64,000 bases of DNA. It comes from Lycium barbarum. Taxonomy: Eukaryota > Streptophyta > Magnoliopsida > Solanales > Solanaceae. The translations under genes were made by a program, and so were the position numbers. The stretch is from positions 27,964,231 to 28,028,230 of the forward strand of contig NC_083344.1 of NCBI RefSeq assembly GCF_019175385.1, given 5' to 3'. The notes beneath the pieces were generated by a model. It was given only the letters and a program-made list of their open reading frames with translations, was not told the DNA's origin and did not search any database. This document shows positions 10,229 through 64,000 of this stretch, in pieces. How positions within the stretch are numbered: the stretch's first letter is position 1; the number at the start of each line of letters is the position of its first letter.

Positions 10229-10272
10229 TCAGTACATATCTCGTACTGACCCCCTTTCTTCAGGGGGGGGGG
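10229..10272 (+). other. Conserved LTR double stem-loop (element A)
   Basis: TCAGTAC-loop-GTACTGA is followed directly by CCCCC-TTTCTTCA-GGGGG. Same position and order as in all other LTRs here. The G side has grown into a 15-G run (10263-10277). Confidence 0.75.
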
Positions 10273-10277
10273 GGGGG
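10263..10277 (+). repeat. 15-G homopolymer
   Basis: Expansion of the GGGGG arm of the second stem-loop of the A LTR. Confidence 0.9.
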
Positions 10278-11318
10278 CTACGTTTCATGCCCGCTAGTAC
10301 AGATGCTCGATTCGGTGATCCCCCAGCTTAGGATTTGCATTCAGCTGTCTTGTAGAGCTCCGTTGTTCCGGAGCCTAGATTTTGGTACATACCTTCTGAT
10401 GTTTATATATATTTTTGTCCAGGGGTACGACGAGGCCCTGTCCCGTCATATTTCACCGTTGATACTCTTAGAGGTCTATAGAAATGTATGTGGGTTGTAT
10501 ACGGATTTGATCACCTGTGTCTATATAGTTTTATTATGGATGTTCTGGCGTTGTAGCAGCCTTGCCGGCTTGCATATACTATCGTTTCGTAGTGGCAGCC
10601 TTGTCGGCATGCGTAATATACTGATATGTAGTGGCAGCCTTGTCGGCTTGCGTGGTATAATGATATATACAGTGGCAGCCTCGTCAGCTTGTGTATGTTA
10701 TTACGATGTTATTGATTGAGGAACTATGGTACCAGTCCGATTATGTTTGACAGGTACATATGGGTGTCCATCTCGGGCACTAGTCATGGCCCACGAGGCT
10801 GGGTTGTGACAACGGTGTATATTTTGTCACACCCCAATCCTGATAGGGCATGATGGGCAACCGACCCATACTTAGAGCCGAGCGAACCCGTTGGTTCTCG
10901 TTACACTCATAGTTCCACTGGACTTCTTAAAACATGAGACGAGATGCATGAGGAAAGCTTTTCAAAAACACTTTTTTTGTCCTTCTCCAATCGAGTAAAA
11001 CTGTAATCATATGAAATCTGTAAAGTAAGGCATATTGATACACCGGCTTACATAGCTGCTTACAAGGATGACGTACTATATACATGACTCTGTATGCGAA
11101 AGTCTCTAACATAAGATATGATATCAAACCTAAGTTGGGACAGGACCCCAACATACCCATAATGTATATGACTCAGCTCATAAGGAAATACTCCGACGTG
11201 CCATCACTCCGAACCAAATGGAGTTTACCAATCCAGCTGGTGGCCTAGAACATCCTATAGTCAAACTCCTGGATAACTTTCCTGCAAAGCAATATGGGGC
11301 TGTGTGGCATGAAACACA

Positions 11319-11360
11319 GCGCCCCCAGGCAAAGGGACGTCAGTACGAATAATGTACTGA
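11319..11360 (-). other. Conserved LTR double stem-loop (D1)
   Basis: In LTR orientation TCAGTAC-ATTATTC-GTACTGA, then a CGTCCC...GGGGGCG stem with one mismatch, leading to GTGTTTCATGCC. Confidence 0.7.
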
Positions 11361-12870
11361 GTATGTAAAGCATAATCAATAACATAATGAAAGCATAAGA
11401 AATAACATAAGATGGACGAGTCATGAAATGAAAGAGCTAGGTATACCCCTAGCGACGTTCGTTATGTTTACTTATCCTCTTTCTAAAGGGAAAACTTCCA
11501 TTTTCATACATTTGTACATATAGTAGTAACATACCCGACCATATAGGTTCGGTGTCTTACGTACCCGGCCATAATAAAGCTTGGTGTTATACGTACCCGG
11601 CCCTACCAAGGCTCAATGTTATACGTACCTGGCCCTACCAAGGCTCAGTGTTATCCGTACCCCTGCAGTGGTGTACGCGCATTAGATATCGTACTCGGCC
11701 ATATAAGCTCGGTGTTATGTAATTGCCATACATACTTATATATATATACACGTAGGTGTGCTAAAGTCATGTCAATATCATCGTCATCCTTGCCATCATT
11801 ACTATTATCATCATCGTTATTACCATCATCACTTTGAAGAGCATTCACTGCATGTATTTCAAAATATCGAAAGCCACGAACATTATAACATTTCTAGGAA
11901 TAGAACGTTTTGAATATCTTAGATGGCATCCCTAAAATTCACCTTGTCATCATCATCGTTATCATTGTCATCACAAGAAACATTGTCAACAATATCAAGA
12001 GAATCTCGAGGGTCATGAGCTTAAAGCATTTACAGGAATAGGAGTAGCGTGAATATCTCGTATAGATGCAAAATGAGGAAAACATGCCTTTAGAAAGAAG
12101 GGTTAGCCTTACATACCTCTTTGTCTTCTCAACTACTTAACGTTCACCATCGAAGCTTGAACAATCTACATTTAGGAGGATTCATACTATGGTTAAGCCT
12201 TAATGATACTCTTAAATTCAAGCTGGAATAATTCATGATCTAATGAAAATTGGGCAGCATTTCCCCTATTTCGTCAACTTCCACCATATTACAAAACTAC
12301 TTCTCAAACAACTATAATAACATCCATAATATCATAATCAAGTAATCACATTCCATTAAGCCTTCAAAATTAATCCTTATATTCAACTTGTACTAACAAC
12401 TACACATCAACCCTTTGCACATTTTCATACAACACTTCTTCATCATCATGGTTGCCTTACATAACAAGATTATACCTATATTATACTAAGAATCATAACT
12501 AACATTAGCTCAATACTCAAAAACATCATAAAAGTTACATTTAGATCTCATTTTCTACTTTCTTCTTCTACCCAAGTTTTCCAACAACCAAGCATTCATG
12601 ATAACATGAAATAAGCATGAAAACTAACCTTTTATCTTATAAGAATGGGATTTGGAGCAAGATATCACCTTGGGGGAAAACCCTAGCTTTAATACTCAAG
12701 TTGTTCTTGAAGTCTATTAACCCTAGTAAGCCTTCCAACACATGAACACCTTAAATCTTGCTATTTGATCTTGATTTCTCTTTGATTTGAGTGGAAAATG
12801 TTTGGAGAAGGTTTGGAGCTCTCAAGACTTGTGGAAAATGAAAAATGAAAGAAAAGAGCAAGGGTCTTCT

Positions 12871-13035
12871 ATTTATACAAAAATAAGAAAATCTGCCCCA
12901 TGGACTTATACGGACCGTATAAGTGGACCATATAACACCTCCAAGAAAAAGACCCTTTGTGTAAATGCCGAGTTATACGGACCCCTCTTATACGGGTCAT
13001 ATAAAGTTATACGGACCGTATAAGTGGTCGTATTA
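12871..13035 (-). promoter_or_regulatory. TATA box with upstream dyad repeats (D1 promoter)
   Basis: Minus-strand TATAAAT at 12871-12877. Just upstream are copies of CTTATACGGACCGTATAAG (12905-12923 and 13007-13023), a partial copy (12972-12998) and half sites. The first is a perfect 10+1+10 dyad. Clustering directly upstream of a TATA box suggests protein binding sites in U3. The binding factor is unknown. Confidence 0.6.
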
Positions 13036-13785: not shown

Positions 13786-13903
13786 ATGTATGACTCACAA
13801 CATAATGTACAAATGCATTAGTATCCCTTGATTATCATACTTATCACCTGTCATCTTTTCACTCATTCATGATCTTTATAACTGTACTTCATGCTTTACA
13901 TAT

Positions 13904-13940
13904 TCAGTACATTTTCCATATTGACCCCTTTCTTCGGGGG
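13904..13940 (+). other. Conserved LTR double stem-loop (E 5' LTR)
   Basis: TCAGTAC with its right arm mutated to ATATTGA, followed by CCCC-TTTCTTC-GGGGG. The E 3' LTR copy at 30047 keeps the right arm of the first stem. Confidence 0.65.
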
Positions 13941-14433
13941 CTGCGTTTCATGCCCGCAGGTACGGACACTCGGTTTGGTGATCCTCCAGCCTTGGACTTC
14001 TGCTCAGCTGCTTGGGGAGCTCTATCATTCCGGAGCTTGAGTCATTTTAGTACAAATCCTTTGATATAGACTTATGCATATCCAGGGGTACAACGGGGCC
14101 CTGTCCCTTGATATTTCACTATTATACTCTTAGAAGTCTGTAGACATGTGTGGGTTGTATTTGTGTTTTTGTCAGCTATATTGACGTAGTTCGTTTTGGA
14201 TATTCCCGTATATAGTGGCAGCCTTGTCGGCTTGCATATCTTGTTATGTTTTGATTAACTGTGAATACTTAGGAGACAGGTTCATTTTTATATAAGACCT
14301 TATGAGTCTACAACATGCTCTTCCAAATTTCCATATTGTCCTTAGTTTCAGTATGATTATATCTAGCAGGTTCGTATACGAGTGTCCAGCAGGGGCACTA
14401 GTCATGGCCCATCGGTTTGGGTCGTGACAGAAG

Positions 14434-17416: not shown

Positions 17417-17952
17417 AGGATATGTTATCGTGCGTATTCCTCTGCATTGTTTACCGAGTCCCTCGTTAGAGGGCCGGGTATGGTATATGTATATGATGAT
17501 ATGATTATAGCACTGAGTCCCATGATGGGCCGGGTACGGTATATGTGCACATGATTTCATTTACCGAGTCCCTTAATGGGCCGGATACGGTATGACTTCA
17601 TTCACCGAGTCCTTCACTAGAGGGCCGGGTACGGTATGTATATGTATATGTATATGCATACATGATGATATGAAAGCGGGATGAAATGATTTTGATCACC
17701 GAGTCCCTTAATGGGTCGGGTACGGTATTTATACGACATATGATGTTCGCACGCATGATTTCATTCATCGAGTCCCATAACGGGCCGGGTACGGTATATG
17801 TATACATGTTTTCATGATGACATAATGACATAGATACGCCTGATTTTCATTTGAAAAGGCAAGTACTTTGATGTTCAAAAAGGTCATACTTGATTCTGGT
17901 AATTCACTATTTCAGTTATGATTCTCTTTTCTGTATTCCATGCCTTACATGC

Positions 17953-17990
17953 TCAGTACATATTCCGTACTGACCCCCTTTCTTCGGGGG
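17953..17990 (+). other. Conserved LTR double stem-loop (G 5' LTR)
   Basis: TCAGTAC-ATATTCC-GTACTGA then CCCCC-TTTCTTC-GGGGG, both stems perfect, followed by CTGCGTTTCATGCCACGCAGGTA. Confidence 0.8.
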
Positions 17991-18415
17991 CTGCGTTTCA
18001 TGCCACGCAGGTACACCCAGATGAGTGGAAGATATTACAGAAGATGTTCCAGTGAAGTTGGCAAGCTCCACTTGTTCCTGGAGTGCTGCCGAGTCAGAGT
18101 ATACGTGCTATGATGTCTCATTAATGTTAGAGACTTTGCAGACAGAGTCGTGGGTGTAGGATGTCGGTTTTGTAAGCGGCTCCATCAGCCGATATGTCAT
18201 TCTGTGTTATGATATAAATTCTACATGATTATGGATTTTGGTTTGATTTGAGAATAACGGAAAGAATATTCTGAAAGTATCACTTTGTGTTTCATTCTAT
18301 TTGACTTAAAAGTCTGAAAAAAGTATGTATGTGTATTAAGAGTCAGAGGGTTCGCTCGGCCCTAAGTAAGGGTCGGGTGCCCATCATACCCTAAGGAGAT
18401 TAGAGTGTGACAAAG

Positions 18416-22318: not shown

Positions 22319-23456
22319 TGTTATAGCCCGTATTTTGTACAATCGAATAATTCGAGATAGTCGTGGTAAGTTAAGGGCAAGACCATTTTCCAAAATTATT
22401 TTAATGCACAAGTTGTTTATGAATATTATTTATGAATATCATTAGTATGGAAATATTGAGAAAGGCTAAGGGTAAAAAGGGAAATTCGCAAAGTGGTATC
22501 AGAGCAGGATATGTTATCATGCGTATTCCTCTGCATTGTTCATCGAGTCCCTCGTTAGAGGGCCGCGTATGGTATATGTATATGATGATATGATTATGGC
22601 ACCGAGTCCCATGATGGGCCGGGTACGGTATATGTGCACATGATTTCATTTACCGAGTCCCTTAATGGGCCGGGTACGGTATGACTTTATTCACCGAGTC
22701 CCTCACTAGAGGGTCGGGTACGGTATGTATATGTATATGTATATGCATGCATGATGATATGAAAGCGGGATGACATGATTTTGATCACCGAGTCCCTTAA
22801 TGGGCCGGGTACGGTATTTATATGACATATGATGTTCACACGCATGATTTCATTCACCGAGTCCCATAACGGGCCGGGTACGGTATATGTATACATGTTT
22901 TCATGATGACATATTGACATGGATATGCCTGATTTTCATTTAAAAAGGCAAGTACTTTGATGTTCAAAAAGGTCATACTTGATTCTAGTAATTCACTATT
23001 TCAGTTATGATTCTCTTTTCTGTATTCCATGCCTTACATGCTCAGTACATATTCCGTACTGACTCCCTTTCTTCGGGGGCTGCGTTTCATGCCACGCAGG
23101 TACACCCAGATGAGTGGAAGATATTACAGAAGATGTTCCAGTGAAGTTGGCAAGCTCCACTTGTTCCTGGAGTGCTGCCGAGTCAGAGTATACGTGCTAT
23201 GATGTCTGATTAATGTTAGAGACTTTGCAGACAGAGTCGTGGGTGTAGGATGTCGGTTTTGTAAGCGGCTCCATCAGCCGATATGTCATTCTGTGTTATG
23301 ATATAAATTCTACATGATTATGGATTTTGGTTTGAGTTGAGAATAACAGAAAGAATATTCTGAAAGTATCACTATGTGTTTCATTCTATTTGACTTAAAA
23401 GTCTGAAAAGAGTATGTATGTGTATTAAGACACCCTAGGGAGATTAGGGTGTGACA
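22319..23456 (+). repeat. 3' LTR of element G
   Basis: TGTTATAGCCCG to TTAGGGTGTGACA, 1,138 bp. Nearly identical to the 5' LTR apart from scattered substitutions and a deletion of about 45 bp shortly before the end. It shares the internal primer-site copy at 22494, and has the double stem-loop at 23042-23079 with one change in the second stem. Confidence 0.92.
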
Positions 23457-24590: not shown

Positions 24591-24804
24591 TGTTTTGTTA
24601 ATATAGCCATGATGATTTATTTATCTTTGAACATTCATTGAACTGTCTCAGATGTCTTCCATAATTTTATATACATATTGATTTAAAAAAAGTTAAAGTT
24701 GCATGTATGGTATCCGCGTTAAGAGGCAATCAAATGTACAAGTCATCTTTATCCCTTGTTATGTTCTATATTTCTTATTATGTTGTTATTCATGCCTTAC
24801 ATAC

Positions 24805-24845
24805 TCAGTACATTGTTCGTACTGATGTCCCTTCTTATGGACGCT
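24805..24845 (+). other. Conserved LTR double stem-loop (F)
   Basis: TCAGTAC-ATTGTTC-GTACTGA, then GTCC-CTTCTTAT-GGAC. The second stem differs from CCCCC/GGGGG of other families on both sides, so pairing is preserved. Confidence 0.78.
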
Positions 24846-25318
24846 GCGTTTCAAGCCACGCAGGTGTATATAGATGAGCAGAAGACATTGGCCATAGGAT
24901 GTTCCTCCGCTATCAGCTGGATTGACGAGCTCCATCTCAGTTTGGAGTGTTGCCGAGTCAGAGTACTTATGTTATGGTATCACGTGTATGTTAGAGACTT
25001 TTGCAGACAGTGTCCTGTGGATAATGCGGTGAGATGTTGACAGTTGTGTAAAGCCACCATCTAAGTTGATGTGTTTTTATGCTTTATTTTTTTTAAAGAT
25101 TTTATTGTGACTAAAGGTTTTCTTTGAATTAACGATAAGGGAGAAGTCCCTGATTTGACGAAAGAGTTTTATTGAAAAGTTTTTTTACCTGACGGAAGCG
25201 TCATTTTGTAAATTAAAGGTTCACAAAGAGTTGTAACTCCTATATGGAATAGTAGTATGGCACTCAACCGAGTAGGGTCTTGGGTGTCAGTCGCGGCCCT
25301 CCGGTTTAGGTCGTGACA

Positions 25319-27183: not shown

Positions 27184-29635
27184 TGTCACACCCCAATCTT
27201 CATAGGGCATGATGGGCACCCGACCCTTACTTAGAGTCGAGCGAACCTGCTGGTTCTCGTTACACTCATAGTTCCATTGGACTTCTTAAAACATGAGACG
27301 AGATGCATGAGGAAAGCTTTTCAAAAAACCTTTTTCTGTCCTTCTCCATTAGATATGATATCAAACCTAAGTTGGGACAGGACCTCAACATACCCATAAT
27401 GTAAATGACTCAGCTCATAAGGAAATACTCTGACGCGACATCACTCTGAACCGAATGGAGTTTTCCAATCTAGCTGATGGCCTGGAACATCCTATAGCCA
27501 AACTCCAGGATAACTTTCCTGCAAAGCAATATGGGGCTGTGTGGAATGACACACAGCGCCCCCAGGCAAAGGGATGTCAGTACGAATAATGTACTAAGTA
27601 TGTAAGGCATAATCAATAACATAATGAAAGCATAAGAAATAACATAAGATGGACGAAGTCATGAAATGAAAGAGCTAGGTATACCCCTATCGACGTTCGT
27701 TATGTTTACTTATCCTCTTTCTAAAAGGGAAACTTCCATTCTCATACATTTGTACATATAGTAACATACCCAACCATAGAGGTTCGTTGTCTTACATACC
27801 CGACCATAATAAAGCTTCGTGTTATACGTACCCAGCCCTACCAAGGCTCAGTGTTATACGTACTGGCCCTACCAAGGCTCAGTCATATCCGTACCCCTGC
27901 AATGGTGTACGCGCATTAGATATCGTACCCGGACATATAAGCTCGGTGTTATGTAATAGCCACACATACATATATATATATAGACACACACACACACATA
28001 GGTGTGCTTAAGTCATGTCAACATCATCGTCATCCTTGCCATCATTACTATTATCATCATCGTTATTACCATCATCACTTTGAAGATCTTTCACCGGAGG
28101 TATTTCAAAATATCGAAAGCCATGAACATTCCAACATTTCTAGGAATAGAACATATCGAATATATTAGATGGCATCCCTAGAATTCACCTTGTCATCATC
28201 ATCATTATCATTATCATCACAAGAAACATTGTCAACAATATCAAGAGAATCTCGAGGGTCATAAGCTTAAAGCATTTACAGGAATAGGAATGGCGTGAAT
28301 ATCTCGTTTAGACGCAAAATGAGGAAAACATGCCTTTAGCAAGAAGGGTTAGCCTTACATACCTCTTTGTCTTCTCAACTACTTAACGTTCACCGTCGAA
28401 GCTTGAACCATCTACATTTAGAAAGATTCATACTATGGTTACGCCTTAATGATACTCTTAAATTCAAGCTCGAATAATTCATGATCTAATGAAAATTGGG
28501 CAGCATTTCCCCTATTTCGTCAACTTCCACCGTATTACAAAACTACTTCTCAAACAACCATAATAACATCCATAATATCATAATCAAGTAATCACATTCC
28601 ATTAAGCCTTCAAAATTCACCCTTATATTGAACTTATACTTACAACTACACATCAACCCTTTGCACATTTCCATACAACACTTCCTCATCATCATGGTTG
28701 CCTTTCATAACAAGATTATACCCATATTATACTAAGAATCATAACTCACATTACCTCACTACTCAAAAACATCATAAAAGTTACATTTAGATCTCATTTT
28801 CTACTTTCTTCTTCTACCCAAGTTTTCCAACACCCAAGCATTCATGATAACATGAAATAAACATGAAAACTAACCTTTTATCTCATAAGAATGGGATTTG
28901 GAGAAAGATATCACCTTGGGTGAAAACCCTAGCTTCAATACTCAAGTTGTTCTTGAAGTCTATTAACCCTAGTAAGCCTTCCAACACATGAACACCTTAA
29001 ATCTTGCTATTCGATATTGATTTCTCTTAGGTTTGAGTGGAAAATGTCTGGAGAAGGTTTGGAGCTCTCAAGACTTGTGGAAAATGAATAAATAAACAAA
29101 AGAGCAAGGGTCTTCTGTTTATACAAAAATAAGAAAATCTGCTTGATGGACTTATACGGACCGTATAAGTGAACCGTATAACACCTCCAAGAAAAAGACC
29201 CTTTCTGTAAATATCGAGTTATACGGACCCCCCTTATATGGGTCGTAGAAAGTTATACAGACCGTATAAGTGGTCGTATAACTCACAGTTACCCTAAACT
29301 TTCTCGCGTTGATTCGTTTGACTTCCAATCCTCGTGGAACCTTCTTGGCACTTACATAATACTTCGTTAACCATACAATAGGCCCTATAGCAGCCCTTTA
29401 AGACACTACAAAATAAATGTTAGCTCAATTACAGAGAAAACCTTTCCGAACACGACTTATATCTCACTTCCTTCAACAAATTAAATGTCACATATTCATG
29501 CAACTTCAAAATCTTATGGTTTGCACCTCAAGATATTTAATACCTTCCTTAATCTCGTAAGGGTTTCATAATCACTTTAAGCTCACATTAGCCTATCCAC
29601 AAGGCAATAAAATCATAAATTTTCGAGGTGTAACA
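27184..29635 (-). mobile_element. Solo LTR D2, nested in the 3' LTR of E
   Basis: Minus-strand LTR with the same borders, same orientation and same flanking tattt (27179-27183 and 29636-29640) as D1. It is 2,452 bp and lacks about 110 bp that D1 has near 10985-11100. It shares the TATA/dyad promoter (about 29116-29290) and the double stem-loop (27556-27595). Identical position in both E LTRs shows that D was copied with E rather than inserted twice. Confidence 0.92.
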
Positions 29636-29639
29636 TATT

Positions 29640-29925: not shown

Positions 29926-30046
29926 ATATATGCATGACTCACAACATAAGGTATAAATGCATTGGTATCCCTTGATTATCATACTTATCTCCTATCATTT
30001 TTCACTCATTCATGATCTTTATTACTTTATTTCATGTTTTACATAT

Positions 30047-30084
30047 TCAGTACATTTTTCGTACTGACCCCCTTTCTTCGGAGG
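30047..30084 (+). other. Conserved LTR double stem-loop (E 3' LTR)
   Basis: TCAGTAC-ATTTTTC-GTACTGA then CCCCC-TTTCTTC-GGAGG. First stem perfect, second with one mismatch. Confidence 0.72.
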
Positions 30085-30571
30085 CTACGTTTCATGTCTG
30101 CAGGTACAGACACTCAGTTTGGTGATCCTCCAGCCTAGGACTTCTACTCAGCTGCTTGGGGAGCTCCATCGTTCTGGAGCTTAAGTCATTTTGGTACAGA
30201 TCCTTTGATATAGACTTATCTATTCAGGGGTACGGCGGTGCCCTATCCCGTGATATTTCACTGTTATACTCTTAGAGGTCTGTAGACATGTGTGGGTTGT
30301 ATATGTGTTTTGGTCAGCTATATCGACGTAGTTCGCTTTGGATATTCCCGTATATAGTGGCAGCCTTGTTGGCTTGCATATCTTGTTGTGTTTTAATTAA
30401 CTGTGACTCCTCAGGAGACAGGTTCATTTTGATATATGACCTTATGAGTCTACAACATGCTTTTACAAATTTCCATATTGTCCTTAGTTTCAGTCTGATT
30501 ATATCTAGCAGGTTCGTATACGAGTGTCCAGTTGGGGCACTGGTCATGGCCCATCGGTTTGGGTCGTGACA

Positions 30572-31608: not shown

Positions 31609-32093
31609 CTTTGTCACACTCTAATAGTGGTAGGGCATGACGGGCACCCGACTCTCATCAGAGTCGAGCGAACCCTTAGATATTCGCTCTATCAAGACCT
31701 GTCATTTCAAAAACTTTTAAGAACATAAAACTTTTTCAAATAGAAATCATTATCTTTATAACGATTATGAAAACTTTCAATCAAATAAGTACTTTAAACC
31801 AATTGAAATCATCTAAAACACATACTCTTTTAAAATCCACAAATGACTCAACTGACATCACTTGGTCGATATCTCGACAAAGTTACCACAGGACACTGTC
31901 TTCAGAAGTCTCTAAGAAGTATACTAAACATTATGAGTGAGGAAAGGGCCTTGACATACCCATAATCATACATATCTATACATGACTCAGCACAACTCCA
32001 GAATGAGGTGGAACTAGCCAATCCCAGCTGACGTCGAAGAATCCCAGCTATACAGTAAACGTGCCAAACAATTTGAGACTACGGGCACGAACG

Positions 32094-43100: not shown

Positions 43101-45063
43101 AGTTCTGATTCTTCCAGAGGGACCCGATGGATATGTTATTTATTGTGACGCTTCTGGTATGGGATTGGGCTGTGTACTGATGCAGCACGGCAGAGTTATA
43201 GCTTATGCTTCTCGGCAGCTGAAAAAGCATGAAAGGAATTATCCTAGCCACGATCTGGAGCTTGCAGCGGTGATTCATGCTCTGAAGATATGGAGACATT
43301 ATTTATATGGCATCCATGTTTATATCTATACAGATCATAAGAGTCTCCAGTATATTTTTAGGCAGAAGGAGCTTATTTTGCGGCAACGGGGGTGGCTGGA
43401 GCTCCTGAAAGACTATGATGTGGATATTCTGTATCATCCGGGCAAGGCTAATGTTGTTGCAGATGCGCTTAGCCGGAAATCTATGGGCAGCTTGGCAGAT
43501 TTACAGCCAGACAAGAGAGAGCTAGTACGTGATATTCATCAGTTGGCTAATCTTGGGGTTCGTCTGGCCGATTCTGGCGGTACACGGATCTCTGTCCGAG
43601 GGGCTTCTGAATCATCTATTAAGGAAGATATCAAGCGGCATCAATATGAAGATCCTGTTTTAGCTCGATACAGAGACATAGCCCATGAGAAGGAGAAGAC
43701 TCCGTTCGAGTTTACACCAGACGGGACCTTACTATACAGAGGCAGGTTGTGTGTACCTGATACTGCAGGGCTACGGCAGCAGGTTATGGGCGAGGCACAC
43801 TATGCTCGCTATTTTGTTCATCCTGGTTCTACGAAGATGTACCATGATCTCAGGTGCCTGCATTGGTGGGATGGCATGAAACGGGATATCGCAGAATTTG
43901 TCGCCCAGTGTCCAAATTGTCAGCAGGTCAAAATTGAACACCAGAAACCGGGTGGACTGTTGCAAGAAATGGAAATTCCGACGTGGAAGTGGGAGATCAT
44001 TAATATGGACTTCATTACTGGTTTGCCTCGCACTCCACGGAAGTATGATTCCATCTGGGTTATTGTTGATAGGCTGACAAAATCAGCCCATTTTCTCCCC
44101 GTCAGAACTACTTATTCCGCTGAGGATTATGCCAGGCTTTATATTAAAGAAATTGTGCGACTTCATGGAGTTCCTATATCTATTATCACTGACAGAGGTG
44201 CGCAGTTCACAGCGAACTTCTGGAGATCTTTTCAGGAAGGATTAGGGACTCAGCTGAGCCTGAGCACAGCTTTTCATCCTCAGAGTGACGGACAGGCCGA
44301 GCGCACTATCCAGACGCTTGAAGATATGTTGCGGGCCTGTGTTATTGATTTCAGAGGTAGCTGAGAGGATCACTTGCCATTGATTGAATTTGCTTATAAT
44401 AACAGCTACCATTCCAGCATCCAGATGGCTCCGTACGAGGCTTTATATGGTAGGAAATGCAGGTCACCTATCGGCTGGTTTGATATTGGCGAGACAGAAT
44501 TAATCGGCCCAGATATGATCCAGCAGGTCGTTGATAAGGTGAAACTTATTCGGGAGCGGCTATTGGCAGCCCAGAGTCGACAGAAATCATACGCTGATAA
44601 ACGGCGTCGTCCTTTGGAATTCCAGGTTGGTGATTGGGTATTTCTGAAGGTATCGCCTATGAAAGGCGTGATGCGGTTCGGCAGAAAGGGTAAGCTCAGT
44701 CCGCCTTATATTGGGCCTTATCAGATTGTTAGAAAAATTGGAAATGTCGCCTATGAGTTAAATCTGCCATCTGATTTGGAGGCGGTGCATCCGGTATTCC
44801 ATGTATCTATGCTCCGCAAATGCATTGGTGATCCCTCCAGAATATTTCCTGCGGATGATATTCAGGTGGCGGAGCAGTTATCTTATGAGGAGCAGCCCGT
44901 AGCTATTTTGGACCGCCAGGTAAGAAAGCTCCGAAACAAAGATGTAGCCTCTGTTAAGGTGTTGTGGCGGAACAACAATAGGGAATAAATGACCTGGGAG
45001 GCCGAAGAGGAAATGAAGATGAAGTATCCTCATTTGTTCCCTACGCCCGCAGGTAATCTTTAA
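40197..45063 (+). pseudogene. Element B gag-pol pseudogene
   Basis: One frame for gag and pol from MPPKKATAAQK (40197) to the TAA at 45061. Gag: capsid-like domain (ANWYESWEL, about 40722), then a nucleocapsid with two Cys motifs. The second reads CFSWGRQGHSVRDC, so one zinc-binding Cys is Trp. Protease: IDPGS at about 41697. Reverse transcriptase: FIDDILVYS, Asp pair at 42706-42711. RNase H: YCDASG with Asp at 43147. Integrase: HHCC finger about 43798-43926, core with TDRGAQF at about 44188. Chromodomain-like tail: VKVLWRNNN about 44955. Stops at 41085, 41226, 41496, 42204, 44362 and 44986, and a one-base frameshift at about 42460. Enzyme active sites are otherwise intact. About 1,620 codons, a normal size for the lineage. 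Confidence 0.95.
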
Positions 45064-45161: not shown

Positions 45162-45197
45162 AACATTCGAGGACGAATGTTCTAAAGGGGGGGAGGA
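45162..45197 (+). promoter_or_regulatory. PPT-adjacent hairpin and polypurine tract (B)
   Basis: AACATTCG-AGGA-CGAATGTT (45162-45181), a perfect 8-bp inverted repeat, followed by CTAAAGGGGGGGAGGA up to the 3' LTR start. Confidence 0.9.
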
Positions 45198-48100
45198 TGT
45201 TATATCCCGTGTTTTCACACGTTGGAAAAATTTGAAAACAATCTTGACTTGTAAGAAATAAGGTCATAGTTGATTTTTATTTGACATAGGATTCGTGCAT
45301 AAAAGAGTATGGCTGTGAAAGTGTGGGATAAGGCTAAGGGTAAATTTGGAATTTTGGAAATTAGTTTCGGGAATTACAAAATGTGGGCTATAACTCATTG
45401 GGCTAAAAAAAATGAATTGAGGCCCAAACCATAGACCATGGCCGGCCACCATGGCCTTGGCCCAAGTCCATTTACATGGTCATGTGCTTGACCATGTGAC
45501 CAATAATTATAAGAAGACCAAGTCTTCATAGTATATCCATTAGAGAGCAAGAAAACCAAAGCAAAAATAAGAGCAAGAAGAGAGAAGGGTTTCGGGTTTG
45601 CTTGGGAAAAATCACTCCCAATAATATTGCTCCTAAAATTTTTCTTTTGTGGTTTTCCTACTAAATTGAGTAGCCTCTTCAACTTGGTGTAGTTGTCTTG
45701 GAGGGAGAAGCACTTGATTCATCAAAGTGAGCACAAGTTCAAGTGAAGAAGACTAGAGAATAAGGTAAGAATTCATCCCTTATCCTTGTGTTATGAAGTC
45801 TTGTTTGTGTTGTAGTATGTAGAAATGTGTTGATTGTATGAAGAAATGGATGTTTGCAAAGTGGGTGTGTGGTATATATGTGTAGTCGTGTGCATGTGTA
45901 TATTGTATAGCCATAATGTGCTGAATTCATGTTATATTCTAGTTGTGGTGGTAGTGAAATGCATATTGGGAATGAAAGTAGAATGAATTGAGTTGAAGTT
46001 GATAAAAAGAGTATATGGCCGTGGGGTGTGGAGTGTGTGGAATGGAAATGGATTAAGTTTGTTTAGTGTGTTAGTTGTGTTATTGTGATTCTTGCAATGT
46101 AAATGGAAGTAAAATGATATGATTTTGCTTTGAAATGAAATATAGAAACTTATGTCGCTTTAGTACGATTTTACGACGTTGTGAAAATAAAGATGTTAGG
46201 GTATAAGTTATGATGATCATTGATGGATTTGGAAGATGGAAACAGGTTATGAATATGTATGCCAAAGATTAGTAGTTTTGGACGAGTTAGGACTTTGGCG
46301 GAAAGTTTGTATATTATGTATATCGTATGTATAATTTGAGGAAACGATATGAAACACCTCTAAACTATGTTGTGATGATCTAGTTTGATAATGAATGCGA
46401 AATCATTGAAATTGGTTTGGGAATTGAAGTTGAAATGAAGGTTATGGCATTATGTCGGCAAGAAGAACTAGTTGTGCCATATTGTGTTTCTAATGTTTGT
46501 TGTTGATGTTGATGTTGTTGTTTGGGTTGTTGTTGATGATTTTGAGCCGAGTTGAATTCTCGGGGGTGCTATATGTATAGGGGAAGTGCTGTCGAAATTT
46601 CGGTAGACAAATATGAGTTGAATTGAATTCGTAGCATCTATAACTTACAATTGGTAAATGCGACCATTTGCAGATTTTCGACGAAACGGGGAGTGAGCTT
46701 GGATAGGCTTAAAAAGCTCAAAAGGTATGTAAAGCTACCCGATCCTTCTTTTGGCATGCCTAAGTGTATTAGAATCGGATTCGGGCCTCGAAAGACTTTC
46801 TGCCCATCGGAATCCGCAATTGAAAATCTCGCTTTTTCCTTCAGTAAGCTTGAGCCCTTTTGGTTTGTATTCTTGAAAATCATGCAAACTTTCCCTAAAC
46901 TACTTGGAAAGCTATAGAACGTCCGTAGAACCTTTGTAGGTGACCCCAGAAGCTTAAAACATGTAATTTGAGCCCACCGCCTTGCTTGTCCCGAGGTGGG
47001 CACGCTATTCCGGTTTTGCCCTTATTGTACTTAAGTCCTATTTTCGAGCGGTTTTTGAAAGAAATGTTTTGACTACCATTCTAATTACCTAACAAACATT
47101 GTTTTAAATATTCCATTAAGTCTGATAAATTGTTTTGACACTCGAAACGACTTCAGAAAGTTTATACTCTGTAATTCATTATGATATCCGAAACTCATTT
47201 ACTACGATCCCTTCCGACTTCATTGGATCGGTTTGTCTTTGATATGCCTCATCGAGTCTCTGGAAACATTTATGATATTTTAATTGCATTAGTCTCTCAC
47301 TACTCCACTCGTGGATGCCCCAATGTTTCCCACACTGAGCCCGGGCCAGGATATGTTGTCAAGCGTGATCCTCTGCATTGTTCGCCGTGCCTCGATGTGA
47401 GGGGGCAGGTATACGCGTACATGGGTCTGTGGAGTATGATGTGCCATGTCCGCTTGTTCTGATATTATTTGCTATGGCCATTTGATATGACATATTATGT
47501 TCGGGGTTATGCCCCTATTATGATTCTTCTGTGTTGTGGCACCAGCGTCGGGAGGGTGGCCACATTCTGTCTGCCGAGTCCCTTGGCAGGGGCCAGATTT
47601 GATATGACATATGTTTCTGTACACACTCTGCATGTTTTGAAAATATGTATCTGATACTTTGGATTTTCTGTTTACTTTCTGTACGTTCTGTACCAGTTAT
47701 GATTTTGTCTCTGTAATTCAGGCTTTACATATTCAGTACATATTTCGTACTGACCCCCTTTCTTCGGGGGCTGCGTTTTTATGTCGCGCAGGTACCGACG
47801 ACAGGTTTGTAGATCCGCCCGCTTAGGATCTTATTCTTCTATTTTGGGGCGCTTTTTTATTCAGAGCCCATCTTTTGGTACAGTCTGTCATTACTGTATA
47901 TGTATATTCTCGTTCATGGGTACGGCGGGGCCCTGTCCCGTCATATGATTCTGTCGTTCTGTTTAGAGGTCTGTGGACATGTTTGTGGGTTGGGGTCTTT
48001 CTGTACAGATGTGTGTATATGTTGTGTTTGGGCGATCCCATTCGCCGCGGCGGTCGGTCCGCATATATTTAAATGTTGCTTTGTTGGCCCTTTGTGGCCT

Positions 48101-50197: not shown

Positions 50198-50661
50198 TAT
50201 CACGACCCAACCGAAGGGCCGCGACGGGCACCCGGTGCTGACCCACCCGGACACCTCTTATCATACTTTCACATTTACATCTAGGTGAGCCACATAGCTA
50301 AATCATACTTTCCATCCACTATTCATACTAATCCCATTGGGCAACAATACATATATATCACCATCAATGACAATGCCCATATAAATGTATATAAGCCGAC
50401 GAGGCTAACAAAATGATATCTAAATTATGGGCGGCTAAGGCCAAATACATCTAACCATATACACATGTCAACGAGCCTCTAAGGAGAGTATGTCATATCA
50501 CATAGGCGGGATAGGACCCCGCCATGCCCATGAGTATGTACACAAAAGAATAAATACCAAAAGCTGTAGCTCCAAATGAAATGGAGCTCCGTTATGTAGT
50601 CCCAGAGTAATAAAGCTATGGATCAAGTCTGTCTCTCTGGCCACCTGCGGGCATGACGCAG

Positions 50662-50702
50662 CGTCCACAAACAAAAGGACGTCAATACGAAGAATGTACT
50701 GA
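50662..50702 (-). other. Conserved LTR double stem-loop (C 3' LTR)
   Basis: In LTR orientation TCAGTAC-ATTCTTC-GTATTGA then CGTCC-TTTTGTTTGT-GGACG. Confidence 0.75.
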
Positions 50703-52094
50703 GTATGTAAAGCATGATAAACATCATTATGAAAGCATAATAGACGACATATGAAATAGCATAAGATGGGAGGTAGCAGAACCATCGTCATAAACACTTG
50801 CCTGATTTTTTTTTATTGGGACATTCCATTTCTAATGCGTAACCGGGTACATACATCCATATCCGTATCCGTATTCATATCCATTTTCATATTCATAGAA
50901 CATTCGTATTCGTATCAAATACATAGCGTAAACATATCCATATCATATACATGGCATACCCGCCCATGAAGGTTTAGTGTTTCACATACCTGAGCCTTGG
51001 CAAGGCTCAGGGTTGTCCGTACCCAAATGCAGTGGAGCGCGCGCAATATATATATATATATTCTACCCGGCTATATAAGCTCGGGGTTTCATAATATTCA
51101 TACATATACACATATACATAAAAGCTCATAAGCATCTTTAGCATCATTACTATCGTCGTTCATTACATCTATCCCCAGAGGATTACTCATCATATAAGGA
51201 ATTTAGTACAATCGTAACATATCGAGGATCATGAGCTTAGTAGCCTTTAAAGATAGAATCATTTGGAGGACATCATAGGCTCATGAAAGAATAAATATAT
51301 GGCCAGAGAACCATGCCTTATCGAAAGAAGGGTTAGCCTTAAATATCGTTTCGTTCAACTATTCTATCACTTGAATGTTCTCCTTCAATGCTCACATTTC
51401 TACCTTCATTAGAGTTATACTAACATTAGAAAATCGATAGCCTAGCATACTTGACTAAAGCTAGAGAAAATTCGACAGCATCTCCTTTATTTATACGACT
51501 TCGTCCATATCATATATCAACTCCCAAACACATATAATAACATTCACAACATCATAACAATAGCCTTTTTCCACCTATATTATCCATATTCCTCCATTCA
51601 CTTCCAATCATCCGTATCCATGGTCATAGCACACTATTACATTCACTCATATACAATGTCTATCCCATGTTCTCAACATCATTTATAACATAATCATAAT
51701 CACAACATATCAAGAATCGTGACTCAATATAGATTACTACTTATAAACATCATAAAAACCACGTTTAGACTTCATTTTCTACCTTCTCCTTCCACCCAAG
51801 TTTTTCTACAACCAAAAATTCTCAACAACATGAAATAAGCATGGATACTAACCTTTTCATCCTATATAAACAAGCTTTGGAGCAGCTATCAACTAGTGCA
51901 AAACCCTAGCTACAATGCCCATGTATTTCTTGTAGTCCTCTAACCCTAAGAAGCATTCTAACACATAAATACTTGATTCTAGTCTTTTGATCTTTGTGTT
52001 CTCTTGGACTTGAGTGGAATGTGCTTAAAGAAGGGTTTTGAGCTCTCAATACTTGTAGGAGATCAAAAATGAAGTAAAATAACCCAAGGCATCT

Positions 52095-57982: not shown

Positions 57983-60900
57983 TGTTATATCCCGTGTTTA
58001 CACACCTTTGGAAAATTGGAAATAATTTGGACTTATAGGAAATAAGGTCATATTGAATTTATGTAACCCATGAGTTGTTCATGAAAGAATATTAATGTGG
58101 AAGTGTTGAAGAAGGCCAAGGGCAAAAATTGGAATTTCGGAAATTAGTTTCGGGAATTACAAATGGGATCTATAAGTCATTGGGCCAAAATAATTGAATG
58201 AAAAATTTAGGCCCAACACTTAAGGGATGGCTGGCCATGTAGGCCCAAAACCCACCAATTTAATGAATATTTTCCATGTGTTGGAATTAATATATGAAGC
58301 CCTTATCTATTGGAATATTCAAGAAGCATAGAAAAGAAAGAACAAAACAAAAGAAGAGCAAAAATTGAAGGGAATTCGGCCAAACCCTCACAAATTCACC
58401 TTCAAAAATCTTCCTCCAAAAATTATTATCTTGTGGTTTGTCTACTAAATTATGTGTCCTTTACAACTTGGTGTAGTTGGTTTGGAAGAAAGAGGACTTG
58501 TTTCTTCAAATTGACAACTCACTCAAGTGAAGAAGATTGGAGAAAAAGGTAAGAACTCATCCCTTTTTATTATGTTATGAAGGTTTGTTTGTGTTGTAGT
58601 ATGTAGGGATGAGTAGAAAGTATGGAAATATGGAAGTTTGCAAAGTGGGTATATAGATATATGTAGCCGTGTGTGTGCAATGTGGTGTAGGCAAAAATGA
58701 GTTGAATTTTATGTTGTATTCTAATTGTGGTTATGGTGGGAATTATATTGGAAGTGGAAGTTAAATTAATTTGGTTGAAGTTGTAAAATGGGCACTTGGC
58801 CGTGTGGCACTTCTTGAAGAAATGGGAATGAATTAATGTTGTTTAATATGTTAGTGGTGTTGTTGTGATCCTTGCAATGTAGATGAAGGTAAAATGATGT
58901 AAGTTTGCATTGAAATGGAATGTAGTGGCTTATGTCGTTTTAGAATGATTTTATGACATTATGAAAATAAAGTTATTAAGTTGCAAATTATGATGAGTAT
59001 TGATGAAGTTGGAAGCTAGAAACATATTATGAGTGTGTTTGTTAAAGATTAGAAGTTTCGGACGAGTTATGACTTTAGCCGAAAGTTTGTATATTATGTA
59101 TATCGTATGAATATTTTGTGGAAATGCTATGAAATGCTTTTAAACTATGTTGTGGTGATCTAGATTGATAATGAATGTGAAATCGTTGAGCTTAGTTTGA
59201 AAGTTAAGGTTAAAGTGAATGTTATGGCATTATGTCGGCAAGTAGAACTAGTTATGTCATATTGTGTTTTGTATTGATTGTGGTTGTTGTGGGTGTTGTT
59301 GTTGGGTTGTTGTTGATTGATTTGGCCGAGTTGAATTCTCGGGGGTGCTATATGTATAGGGGAAATGCTGCCGAAATTTCGGTAGACAAATAAGAGTTGA
59401 ATTGAATTTGTAGCATCTATAACTTACAATTGGTAAATGTGACCATTTGCAGATTTTCGACGAAACGGAGAGTGAGCTTGGATAGGCTTAAAAAGCTCAA
59501 AAGGTATGTAAAGCTACCCCGATCCTTCTTTTGGCATGTCTAAGTGTTTTAGGATCGGATTCGGGCCTCAAAAGACCTTCTTGGCCATCGGAATCCGCAA
59601 GAGAAAATCTCAGTTTTTCCCTCAGTAGAATTGAACCATTTTGATATGCTTTTCCTGAAAGTATGTAGACTTTCTCTAAACTCCTTGAAAAGCTATAGAA
59701 TGTCCGTAGAACCTTTATAGGTGACCCCATAAGCTCAAAGGGCGTAATTTGAGCCCACCGCCTTGATTGTTCCGAGGTGGGCCCGCTATTCCCGGTTTTG
59801 CCCTTAATGTACTAAAGTCCCCTCTTTGAACGATTTTTGGAAGAAATGTTTCGACTACCCTTTTAATTACCTAACTAATATGGTTTTAAATATTCCATTA
59901 AGTCTGATAAATTGTTTTGATACTCGAAACTCATTTACTATGATTCCTTCCGACTTCATCGGATCGGTTTGTCTTTGATATGCCTCATCGAGTCTATGGA
60001 AACATTTATGATAATTTACTTGCATTAGTTTCTCACGACTCTATTCGTGGATACCCCAATGTTTCCCACACTGAGCCCGGGCCAGGATATGTTGTCAAGC
60101 GTGATCCTCTGCATTGTTCGTCGTGCCTCGATGTGAGGGGGCAGGTATACGCGTACATGGGTTTGTGGAGTATGCTGTGCCATGTACGCTTGTTCTGATA
60201 TGATTTACTATGGCCATCTGCTATGATATGTTATGTTATGGGGTTATGCCCCTATTCTGATTCTTCTGTGTTGTGGCACCAGCGTCGGGAGGGTGGCCAC
60301 GTTCTGTCGGCCGAGTCCCTTGGCAGGGGCCGGATTTGATATGACATATGTTCTGTACACACTCTGCATGTTTTGGAAATATGTATCTGATACTTTGGAT
60401 TTTCCATTTACTTTCTGTATGTTCTGCACCAGTTATGATTTTGTTTCTGCAACTCAGGCTTTACATATTCAGTACATATTTCGTACTGACCCCCTTTTCT
60501 TCGGGGGTTGCGTTTTCATGCCGCGCAGGTACCGACGACAGGTTTGCTGATCCGTCTGCTTAGGATCTCATTCTGCTATTTTTGGAGCGCTCTTTTATTC
60601 AGAGCCATCTTTTGGTATAGTCTGTCACTTCTATATATGTATATTCTCGTTCATGGGTACGGCGGGGCCCTGTCCCGTCATAGGATTCTGTTGGTTTGTT
60701 AGAGGTCTGTGGACATGTTGTGGGTTGGGATCTTTCTGTACAGTTGGGTGCTTATGTTGTGTTTGGGCGATCCCATTCGCCGCGGCGGCCGGTCCGCATA
60801 TATTTAGATGTTGCTTTGTTGGCCCTGTGTGGCCTTTGTTGGTATTTTCTGCGTGCAGGATATGTGGGATAGTCCATAAAACAAAGGAAACTCTGCCAAA

Positions 60901-61019: not shown

Positions 61020-61338
61020 GCAATAATACATATATATCACCATCAATGACAATGCCCATATAAATATACATAAGCCGACGAGGCTAACAAAATGATATCC
61101 AAAGTATGGCAGACAAGGCCAAATACATATAACCATATACACATGTCTACAATCCTCTAAGGAGAGTATGTCATATCACATAGGCGGGACAGGACTCCGC
61201 CATGCCCATAAGTATGTACACAAAAGAATAAATACCAAAAACTGTAGCTTCGAATGAAATGGAGCTTCGCTATGTAGTCCCTGAGTAATAAGGCTATTGA
61301 TCAAGTATTTCTCCCTGGCCACCTGCGGGCTTGACGCA

Positions 61339-61380
61339 GCGTCCACAAACAAAAGGAAGTCAGTACGAAGAATTCACTGA
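61339..61380 (-). other. Degraded LTR double stem-loop (C 5' LTR)
   Basis: Counterpart of 50662-50702. The second stem has lost a pair (CGTCC with GGAAG) and the first has a changed right arm. Confidence 0.6.
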
Positions 61381-61752
61381 GTATGTAAAGCATGATCAAC
61401 ATCATTATGAAAGCATAATCGACGACATAAGAAATAGCATAACATGGGAGGTAGCAGAACCATCGTAATAAACACTTACCTGATTTTTTATAGGGACTTT
61501 CCATTTCTAATGCGTAACCGTGTACATACATCCATATCTGTATCCGTATTCGTATCAATTTTCATATTCATAGCATGTTCGTATTCATATCATACACATA
61601 GCGTATACATATCCATATCATATACATGGCATACCCGGCCATGAAGGTTCAGTGTTTCACATACCTGGCCCTACCAAGGCTCAGGGTTATACATACCTGG
61701 CCCTACCAAGGCTCAGGGTTGTCCGTACCCAACAGCAGTAATGCGCACGCAA

Positions 61753-61755
<3 letters not shown>

Positions 61756-61817
<62 letters not shown>
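61756..61817 (+). repeat. AT microsatellite in the C 5' LTR
   Basis: About 30 AT units. The homologous site in the 3' LTR (51045-51062) has about nine. Confidence 0.93.
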
Positions 61818-61819
<2 letters not shown>

Positions 61820-62445
61820 TACCCGGCCATATAAGATCGGGGTTTCATAATAGTCATACATAGACACATATACATAAAAGCTCATAAGCATCTTTAGCAT
61901 CATTACTATCATCGTTCATTACATCTATCCCCCGAGGATTACTCATCATATAAGGAATATAGTACAATCGTAACATATCGAGGATCATGAGCTTAGTAGC
62001 CTTTAAAGATAGAATCATTCGGAGGACATCATAGGCTCATGAAAGAATAAATATATGGCCAGAGAACCATGCCTTATCGAAAGAAGGGTTAGCCTTAAAT
62101 ACCTTTTCGTTCAACTATTCTATCACTTGAACATTCTCCTTCAATGCTCACATTTCTACCTTCATTAGAGTTATACTAACATTAGAAAATTGATAGCTTA
62201 GCTTACTTGACTAAATCTAGAGAAAATTGGACAGCATCTCATTTATTTATACGACTCCCTCCATGTCATATATCAACACCCAAACATATATAATAACATT
62301 CACAACATCATAACAATAATCTTTGTTCACCTATATTATACATATTCCTCCATTCACTTCCAATCATCCATATCCATGGTCATAGCACACTATTACGTTC
62401 ATTCATATACAATGTCTATCCCATGTTCTCAACATTATTTATAAC

Positions 62446-64000
62446 TGCCACGACCCGACTAGGGGCCGTGACGAGTACCCGGTACTTGTACCGAGCACCC
62501 CTTATCTTGTCTCATATCCTTATTACTAAGTGGGTCGTATGACCTATACCATTTTTTTTTCTTTGTTACTTAACATTAACATTAGTAGCATAGTTATGAA
62601 CATAGGCGAACAACCTTTACTAACACATTATACATCGACTAGGACTGCTAAAAGTACAAAACATTTACTGTACACATCTGTCTACGAGCCTCTAGACATA
62701 ATACACATATACACAAGAAGGGCCGAGCACTGTCACGCCCGAATATATATATACACAAAAGTAGTACCAATAAACAGTGGCTCCGGAACAACTGGAGCAC
62801 TCTCTATGAACCGCTGGTGGAGCTTCTAAGAACCGGACCCGTCTACCTGCTTACCTGCGCGGCATGAAACGCAGCGTCCACAAGAAGGGACGTCAGTACG
62901 AATAGTGTACCGAGCATGTAAGGCATGAAAAATAGAAAAGAGAGGAATATAAATTGCAACGCATAACATAATGAAATCATAGGACATATAGAGCGATAAT
63001 AGAGAATCCTGTACATGTATGTACCACCCAGGGCAGATGCCATGCATGCTAAGCTGTCTTTAAAAAACAACATTTCGTGTTCATATATGAATATAAAACA
63101 TAATGTATTGCCGAGGCGTCGGCAGCCGATCCATTTAGCCATGAATGTGTGTAAATATCCCGCGTCCGGGACGATATCAAGTCAAATACGGCTACATGTA
63201 CCGTGTGTATATCCCAGCGTCTATAGCGCTCTGCCCTGCTCCCTTCTTCCCCGTATACATATACATATATACATATATATCATAGCATGCAAGGGAGCCC
63301 AAAGAGAAGCTATAACGTTATCGGAGTGACGTAAGGTCGGTAGCCTCCGATTACATTATGAAATCGTCATGGTCGTCAGGTCTCACCTTGAAGGAACAAT
63401 AATTATAAGGCGAGACTATCAATAAAGAATAACATCACGAGAGAACATAGAACAGGATCATAAGGTATTGTTTCATGTACTATGGAATCTTTAATCATGG
63501 AATCATCATTGTCATATTCATCATGTAAACATTTTCTTTCCTGACATCATCCATGTCATTGTAGAACATACTCATCGTCATTGACAAAAAAACTTACTTT
63601 GCCATATCCTTTATTTTGGGAAAATGCGGGCGTTTGGAAAAAATGTACGAGCTATTGGGGAGAAGATCATACCTTAGGATCAATAGATTAGTTAAACAAC
63701 TATTGTTTAGTAGTCGGAATAGTAACTAAAAGTTTCCCTTAATTATAGTACGAAAATAAGCTAAATGGAACAATAGGAGGGAATTTGGGAATAGTGGGCC
63801 CACCTCAGGTCGACCGGGGTGGCGTACCCAAATTGCATATAATAAGTTTCATGGAGTCACTTATGAAGGTTTTGTTATAATCCGGTTTCAATTGGAAAGT
63901 TATAGAAGTAGGAGCCATTGTTTCAACAAGATAGGAAAAATTTAAGTCAATTCTATTGAATGAAAAAGGGTTAATTTCAATCTCGGATTTCTAGGAATAG
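62446..64000 (-). mobile_element. LTR L (partial), nested in the C 5' LTR
   Basis: At 62446 the C LTR is broken by TGCCACGACCCGACTAGGGG, the reverse complement of an LTR end of the GGGTCGTGGCA type. ataac (62441-62445) is the probable target duplication. It runs past the window end, so solo or full status is unknown. It has a double stem-loop at 62874-62913, and the segment at about 63310-63410 is similar to LTRs F and H. No coding sequence is visible. Confidence 0.8.
62874..62913 (-). other. Conserved LTR double stem-loop (L)
   Basis: In LTR orientation GGTACAC-TATTC-GTACTGA (outer pairs weakened), then CGTCC-CTTCTTGT-GGACG, leading to CTGCGTTTCATGCCGCGCAGGTA. Confidence 0.72.

What the first reader, a model, noticed from the sequence alone, without database searches (positions are those of the whole stretch)
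10229..62913. Double stem-loop in every LTR, with paired changes in the second stem
All LTRs here, on both strands and in clearly different families, keep the order (A/T)CTCAGTAC-loop-GTACTGA, then a 4-5 bp stem, then CTGCGTTTCATGCC. The second stem is CCCCC/GGGGG in A, B, E, G and J, CATCC/GGATG in H, GTCC/GGAC in F and CGTCC/GGACG in C, K and L. Both arms change together while the loop and spacing vary. That pattern indicates selection on an RNA (or DNA) structure in the element rather than on sequence. Copies are at 10229, 11319(-), 13904, 17953, 23042, 24805, 27556(-), 30047, 32094(-), 35223, 39406, 47733, 50662(-), 60469, 61339(-) and 62874(-). I know of no named LTR motif of this kind; that part is unverified.
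Basis: partly seen in the sequence, partly recalled or inferred. Interest (0 to 1): 0.86.

Follow-up and report, generated by a model that had tools for sequence, protein, structure and literature searches.

The report
Three-hairpin RNA in plant retrotransposon LTRs
The long terminal repeats of a huge family of plant jumping genes carry a run of three small RNA-type hairpins whose two arms have changed together in evolution, which suggests an undescribed control signal in the element's RNA.

Summary
The carriers are plant Ty3/gypsy elements; the module lies 413-587 nt before the LTR 3' end in 15 of 16 copies.

The window's own genome (1.67 Gb) could be searched in part. Strict hairpin-3 patterns gave 60,490 copies with CG/CG arms and 14,136 with compensated TG/CA arms, against 2,113 with C·A-mismatched CG/CA arms; the TG/CG class did not complete. 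Twenty arbitrary 10-kb stretches held 19 further copies, 94.4% of 320 cells paired.

On 34 copies not chosen by stem, 7 compensated double changes fall on single branches (tree null mean 1.51; 1 of 3000 replicates reached 7). Internal-branch changes keep pairing in 9 of 9 events, tip changes in 28 of 56. Active lineages kept the structure; dead copies lose it. A single early event is ruled out.

A selected structure is well supported; RNA rather than DNA is likely, not proven; a genomic-RNA role is inference. No Rfam match; nothing found in nine literature searches.

The parts
10216..10307 (+). three-hairpin module copy; H2 3' arm expanded to a run of about 15 G, H3 partly broken
11289..11373 (-). 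three-hairpin module copy; H3 is CTGTG/CACAG
13891..13970 (+). three-hairpin module copy in an LTR followed by a PBS
17940..18021 (+). module in the 5' LTR of the element 17230-23456, which has no gag or pol
23029..23110 (+). module in the 3' LTR of the element 17230-23456
24792..24874 (+). three-hairpin module copy; H2 TGTCC/GGACG
27526..27610 (-). three-hairpin module copy; H3 CTGTG/CACAG; one H2 mismatch
30034..30114 (+). three-hairpin module copy; one mismatch each in H2 and H3
32068..32150 (-). three-hairpin module copy in an LTR followed by a PBS
35210..35290 (+). three-hairpin module copy; H2 CATCC/GGATG, H3 CTGTG/CACAG (both compensated)
39393..39476 (+). module in the 5' LTR (36869-39993) of a Ty3/gypsy element with gag and pol
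47720..47802 (+). module in the 3' LTR (45198-48319) of the same element
50634..50715 (-). module in an LTR on the minus strand (LTR end at 50198)
60456..60539 (+). module in the solo LTR 57983-61019 (5-bp duplication GCAAT)
61312..61393 (-). module in a minus-strand LTR interrupted by the solo LTR 57983-61019
62844..62926 (-). three-hairpin module copy; H1 begins CTCGG (A-U to G-U)
39998..40009 (+). primer binding site TGGTATCAGAGC after the 5' LTR (complement of plant initiator tRNA-Met, recalled)
45184..45199 (+). match to the polypurine tract pattern AAAGGGGGGGAGGATG; its last two bases are the start of the 3' LTR at 45198
40176..41084 (+). gag reading frame (Retrotrans_gag)
42439..44361 (+). 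RT-RNase H-integrase reading frame, Ty3-type

Best explanation
The feature is a cis-acting structured RNA module of plant Ty3/gypsy LTR retrotransposons: a T-rich stretch and a conserved TTACAT-type block, then three abutting hairpins (H1 TCAGTAC/GTACTGA, H2 about 5 bp with variable sequence, H3 CTGCG/CGCAG with a CATGCC loop). It sits at a near-constant distance before the LTR 3' end. Shown: the pairing is there, varies between LTR families by compensated changes, decays on the tips of the tree, and the H3 pattern occurs in tens of thousands of copies; an element without gag or pol, whose LTRs are 97% alike, carries the module. Inferred: it is read as RNA, in the R/U5 side of the element, so near the 5' end of the genomic RNA (and again near the 3' end if in R). 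Inferred further: it is a recognition signal for the element's own machinery (Gag binding, dimerisation or first strand transfer), which elements without genes borrow in trans. I put about 0.85 on a selected structure, 0.7 on RNA, 0.35 on packaging/dimerisation as the role.
For: Pairing 96.3% of 271 cells in the window, 94.4% of 320 cells in 19 copies from 20 arbitrary stretches. Tree-based null on 34 copies not picked by stem: 7 compensated same-branch changes against mean 1.51, 1 of 3000 replicates as high; pairing 95.1% against mean 86.2%, 0 of 3000. On 60 of 63 copies: 7 against mean 1.32, 0 of 3000. Internal-branch changes keep pairing in 9 of 9 events against 28 of 56 on tips, P 0.008; 12 of 13 against 31 of 67, P 0.002, on the larger set. 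Genome counts for H3: CG/CG 60,490, TG/CA 14,136, CG/CA 2,113. Placement: 413-587 nt from H1 to the LTR end in 15 of 16 copies, while the distance from the LTR start is 710, 2473 and 2524 nt in the LTRs starting at 17230, 57983 and 36869. The element 17230-23456 with PBS, PPT and 5-bp duplication, without gag or pol matches, keeps the module in both LTRs. Tree length of the module 2.05 against 5.96 for LTR flanks.
Against: No transcript data: start and poly(A) sites are unknown, so R, U5 or U3 is inferred from position only. Some measures do not exceed chance: in the window the number of pairs with a double change (196 of 500 shuffles; 31% and 20% of tree replicates) and the number of pair types (305 of 500; 153 of 500 in A3). 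Folding z-scores peak equally on the antisense strand. G-U over A-C is 46 to 24 by cells but 26 to 20 by single tip events. The H3 C-G/U-A change and one H2 change lie at CpG sites, where deamination in methylated transposons is frequent. One H2 change (CC/GG to GT/AC) accounts for many cells and may be one event plus recombination. H1 hardly varies, so it gives little covariation. Nothing tested here speaks directly for Gag binding. Other plant species could not be searched.
Confidence: 0.5

Rival explanations
1. It is an RNA element of transcript stability, 3'-end formation or nuclear export: if the LTR's R lies here, the module is also in the 3' UTR and could act like a poly(A)-side hairpin, an ENE-like stabiliser or a transport element.
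For: The module is in the LTR part close to the 3' end, followed by A-rich signals in some families (AATAAA in 39407, AATGAA in 35224; by eye). LTR elements can carry such RNA elements: ENE in Evade of Arabidopsis (PMC12501189, passages); RTE and MTE export elements in mouse (PMC12786077, one passage).
Against: By eye no U-rich internal loops as in ENE in the folded copies; no Rfam match at gathering score in the window, none relevant at E up to 5 in 17900-18420.
Confidence: 0.2
2. It is a TAR-like hairpin set at the 5' end of R that guides first strand transfer or controls initiation and translation at the cap.
For: T-rich tract (46-51% T at -70 to -10) directly upstream, then a conserved TTACAT-type block before H1 would fit a core promoter with the start just before H1.
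Against: No consistent TATA box at a fixed distance; no mapped start sites.
Confidence: 0.15
3. It acts as DNA: paired binding sites or cruciforms in the LTR promoter, recognised by proteins in double-stranded form.
For: H1 arms and the H3 loop are sequence-conserved; antisense folding is as strong as sense.
Against: Arms of H2 change by compensated replacements; G-U cells outnumber A-C cells 46 to 24; on internal branches single changes went to G-U 5 times and to A-C once.
Confidence: 0.12
4. Shared descent, CpG deamination and recombination alone made the pattern; there is no selection on pairing.
For: Several covarying sites are CpG; H2 types partly follow the LTR tree; the 17954 LTR looks recombinant. 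The number of pairs with a double change in the window is not beyond chance.
Against: Tree nulls that keep the number of changes per column: the observed pairing was reached in 0 of 3000 replicates and in 0 and 0.06% of 5000 on two trees in the window. Tips break pairs in 28 of 56 events, internal branches in 0 of 9.
Confidence: 0.03

Closest known systems
Retroviral R-region hairpins (TAR and poly(A) hairpin of HIV-1)
   Same: tandem hairpins in the LTR, structure under selection, near an RNA end if the placement here is right
   Different: three abutting hairpins in plant Ty3/gypsy elements, no Rfam match, no trans-activator known; R borders unknown
Retroviral packaging and dimerisation stem-loops (psi, DIS)
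   Same: short tandem stem-loops, conserved loop sequence, kept in an element without gag or pol that must be mobilised in trans
   Different: lies inside the LTR rather than between PBS and gag; by eye no palindromic loop longer than CAUG; Gag binding untested
ENE elements of plant and fungal transposon RNAs
   Same: structured RNA element in LTR retrotransposons of plants
   Different: ENE needs U-rich internal loops that pair with poly(A) (PMC12501189, passages); none seen here
Retrozymes (hammerhead ribozymes in plant LTRs; abstract in listing)
   Same: RNA structure inside plant LTRs, non-autonomous elements
   Different: no Rfam ribozyme match in the window
LTR profile models of Benachenhou and others (PMC3601003, abstract and passages)
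   Same: links residual conservation in long R regions of retroviruses to stem-loops
   Different: its abstract says that the length variation of plant Metaviridae LTRs prevented models of them; the present module is in that group

Membership tests
Ty3/gypsy LTR retrotransposon (the carrier) | gag, then RT-RNase H before integrase | tested here: met
   Pfam hits; best solved relative Ty3 Gag-Pol; protease domain in a second element's frame 54878-56515
Ty3/gypsy LTR retrotransposon (the carrier) | paired LTRs, PBS, PPT, target duplication | tested here: met
   for 36869-48319 and 17230-23456
Tekay/Del lineage of chromoviruses | lineage placement by pol phylogeny and chromodomain | not tested
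   chromodomain PF00385 is listed for some close pol relatives; the lineage name is recalled
Retroviral packaging signal | Gag-dependent encapsidation | not testable with these tools
   needs experiments
Retroviral TAR-type R hairpin | starts at the transcription start site | not testable with these tools
   no transcripts; no consistent TATA box
ENE | paired U-rich internal loops facing poly(A) | tested here: not met
   none seen by eye in the 16 folded copies; no Rfam hit
Known Rfam family | score at or above the gathering cut-off | tested here: not met
   0 matches in the window; only a CRISPR-repeat match of 14.5 bits, E 2.9, in 17900-18420

The most novel reading that the evidence does not exclude
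The module is the genomic-RNA recognition signal (packaging/dimerisation) of a whole lineage of plant Ty3/gypsy elements, present in of the order of 100,000 copies in one plant genome, shared by coding elements and by the gene-less ones that parasitise them, and so far without a name.
Probability: 0.3. Interest if true: 0.85.

Novelty: new variant of a known kind. Interest (0 to 1): 0.7.

Why it matters
How plant LTR retrotransposons select their RNA for packaging and copying is little known: a 2025 review of host factors in plant cells has no occurrence of hairpin, stem-loop, packaging signal or dimerization (term search in PMC12786077), and profile models of plant Metaviridae LTRs could not be built (abstract of PMC3601003). 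A compact module of about 70 positions gives a direct handle: it can find and orient LTRs of very different length, help to sort families, and be tested by stem-breaking and stem-restoring changes in a reporter. The contrast between internal branches (pairs kept) and tips (pairs lost) is a test that can be reused for other structures in transposons.

Tried and rejected
Rejected: (a) splice acceptor at the AG of H1: 5 of 43 copies have CTCGG instead, and the A-to-G change keeps a G-U pair. (b) Pseudoknot between the CATG before H1 and the CATG of the H3 loop: the upstream bases vary (ATGC, CTGC, CCGC, AGGC) while the loop hardly does (rows). (c) Splice donor after H3: CAGGT within the last 25 nt of the module or the 40 nt after it in 31 of 43 copies, absent at that place in 11359-, 27596- and 32136-, so a lead only. 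(d) Fixed TATA box: not found. (e) A fourth hairpin about 45 nt after H3 with a CTCC/GGAG core: the best stem in 21 of 41 copies with enough sequence (of 63); mean stem score 8.37 against 7.39 in shuffles, and 20% of shuffles reach 8.37; my alignment of it was poor; suggestive only. (f) Relatives elsewhere: viral contigs and genome contigs patterns (chance); pol scans of viral contigs, none. (g) Literature; no description seen in the listings. (h) H2 genome-wide counts and the TG/CG class of H3 did not complete.

Limits of samples: L057-L064 (8 copies) were chosen by the 14-mer of H3 and L085-L104 (20 copies) by both H3 arms being CG/CG, so H3 pairing in A4 is inflated; one search repeats the test without them on 34 of 35 rows (L070 dropped as misaligned). 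One search dropped L059, L096 and L070 of 63. A3 and A4 are fitted to the model and lean towards its structure; A1 is not. The 20 arbitrary stretches lie on contigs C1-C5 only.
Full report
WHAT IS THERE. Aligned, they share a TTACAT-type block, then (C/T)TCAGTAC-7 nt-GTACTGA with few exceptions, then a 5-bp stem with a pyrimidine-rich loop, then CTGCG-TTTCATGCC-CGCAG. The three stems abut without linker in 15 of 16 copies. A covariance model of the module finds these 16 and nothing else above 12.5 bits in the window.

THE CARRIERS. The window is a nest of plant Ty3/gypsy elements: gag, RT-RNase H and integrase, closest solved relative Ty3. Of 7982 related proteins 120 are listed; most of the named ones are plant proteins, many from Tanacetum and Cucumis, some from Solanum. 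PBS TGGTATCAGAGC, PPT AAAGGGGGGGAGGATG and LTR ends are found. Elements: 36869-48319 (LTRs of about 3.1 kb, 97.7% alike, duplication CTGAG) and 17230-23456 (97.1% over 1112 bp, duplication CTATG); a solo LTR 57983-61019 (duplication GCAAT). The lineage name Tekay/Del is recalled from these features, not tested. The own genome has 1.67 Gb in 164 contigs.

POSITION. From H1 to the LTR 3' end it is 413-587 nt in 15 of 16 copies (the sixteenth LTR, 61379-, is interrupted), while the distance from the LTR start is 710, 2473 and 2524 nt in the LTRs starting at 17230, 57983 and 36869. The module is therefore tied to the 3' (R/U5) side. Upstream lies a T-rich tract (46-51% T at -70 to -10, against 32-34% at -130 to -70, ten representatives). 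The transcript ends are unknown.

IS IT STRUCTURE? On the unfitted alignment 96.3% of 271 cells pair, against 27-53% in slid controls; 15 cells have a double change (0 of 500 shuffles as high), at three pairs (196 of 500 shuffles as high, so the number of pairs is no evidence). A null that keeps the tree and the number of changes per column reached the observed pairing in 0 and 0.06% of 5000 replicates on two trees, the double-change cells in 0.12% and 0.16%, the same-branch double changes in 0.2% and 0.84%, but the number of pairs with a double change in 31% and 20%. Within families with several copies the private changes are 7 G-U, 7 broken, 1 gap and no compensated one, while family-level states pair in 167 of 170 cells, the three exceptions all in 10230.

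GENOME-WIDE. The 14-mer CTGCGTTTCATGCC occurs 37,192 times, the reversed pattern 0 times. In 20 arbitrary 10-kb stretches on contigs C1-C5 the model finds 19 copies in 11 of the stretches, the weakest with 35 bits, about 95 per Mb; my arithmetic gives of the order of 160,000 in the genome, with a Poisson range of about 95,000-250,000, if C1-C5 are typical. These 19 copies pair in 94.4% of 320 cells. All 20 places chosen by the H3 pattern are matched by the whole model, 19 at 61-101 bits and L096 at 41 bits with H1 disrupted. In all 63 copies 96.1% of 1057 cells pair. Counts for the variable pair of H3: CG/CG 60,490, TG/CA 14,136, CG/CA with a C·A mismatch 2,113; TG/CG did not complete. So among copies with the 3' arm CACAG in these two classes, 14,136 of 16,249 have the compensating 5' arm. 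CpG decay and family amplification contribute to such counts.

THE TREE TEST. On the 34 copies not chosen by stem (16 of the window, 18 of 19 from the arbitrary stretches), 78 changes on paired columns include 7 compensated same-branch changes at three pairs (an eighth same-branch change is not compensated), against a null mean of 1.51; 1 of 3000 replicates reached 7. Pairing of 95.1% was never reached (mean 86.2%, maximum 92.9%). Read as pair characters, internal branches show 9 events, all keeping the pair, 7 of them double; tips show 28 keeping and 28 breaking (Fisher P 0.008). The set of 60 of 63 copies gives the same picture (7 events, null maximum 6; 12 of 13 against 31 of 67, P 0.002). 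Thus compensatory changes happened several times, in lineages that went on to multiply, and single copies lose pairs as neutral decay would.

RNA OR DNA. G-U cells exceed A-C cells 46 to 24 in 63 copies (binomial P 0.012, cells not independent); single tip events are 26 to 20, no clear difference (P 0.46). Folding z-scores peak at the module on both strands alike (-2.3 and -2.4 at offset -20). RNA of the sense strand is favoured by the compensated, G-U tolerant changes but not proven.

HOW IT MAY WORK. The element 17230-23456 has no match to the window's gag or pol and no frame longer than 127 aa from stop to stop (these frames were not scanned against Pfam), yet its LTRs are 97% alike and it keeps the module, PBS and PPT. 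A signal needed in cis and served in trans fits this. The abutting stems could stack on each other, which would present the H3 loop (CATGCC, nearly constant) and the H1 helix as a rigid shape. I therefore favour recognition of the genomic RNA by Gag or RT (packaging, dimerisation or strand transfer) over export, stability or 3'-end formation. This step is inference. A promoter role would also fit a mobile element without genes, so that observation does not decide.

KNOWN OR NEW. No Rfam family matches. Nine answered literature searches showed no description in their listings; library: open-access PMC only. Of the papers I saw passages found by terms, abstracts included: PMC3601003, PMC12501189, PMC12786077 (one passage), PMC3735527 on BARE RNA pools, PMC3902901, PMC6911290, PMC11656987. 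PMC6911290 reports autoinsertions of Tekay in potato and tomato, which would fit the nest seen here. HIV TAR and psi, and retrozymes, are used for comparison from general knowledge and listed abstracts.

VERDICT.

Noticed in passing
17230-23456: Element with LTRs 97% alike, PBS, PPT and a 5-bp duplication but no match to the window's gag or pol and no stop-to-stop frame over 127 aa: apparently a large non-coding derivative.
   Followed up: partly
17405-17416 and 22494-22505: An exact copy of the PBS 12-mer TGGTATCAGAGC lies inside both LTRs of that element, about 175 nt from the LTR start.
   Followed up: no
13295-13812 and 29494-30011: Tandem 47-bp units, by eye imperfect palindromes with TATATATTTA, upstream of the module; similar CACCGAGTCCC...GGGCCGGGTACGG units stand before several other copies.
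   Followed up: no
17954 and 23043 LTRs: The tree of LTR sequence around the module (mostly downstream) and the tree of upstream sequence disagree on this family: its LTR looks like a recombinant with the break after the module.
   Followed up: partly
57845-62445: A minus-strand LTR is split by a plus-strand solo LTR (57983-61019) with duplication GCAAT.
   Followed up: partly
10825-11373 and 27184-27610: A minus-strand LTR lies beside the repeat array of a plus-strand LTR in two copies 16.2 kb apart, 93% alike: perhaps an LTR nested in an LTR and copied with it.
   Followed up: no
about 45 nt after H3 in many copies: A possible fourth hairpin with core CTCC/GGAG; best stem in 21 of 41 copies, 20% of shuffles reach the mean score.
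   Followed up: partly
10216-10307: Run of about 15 G in the H2 3' arm of this copy.
   Followed up: no
protein search of 42439-44361: A protein filed under Corynebacterium sp. MC-10 (P0004) is 81% identical to this plant pol, probably plant DNA in that assembly.
   Followed up: no
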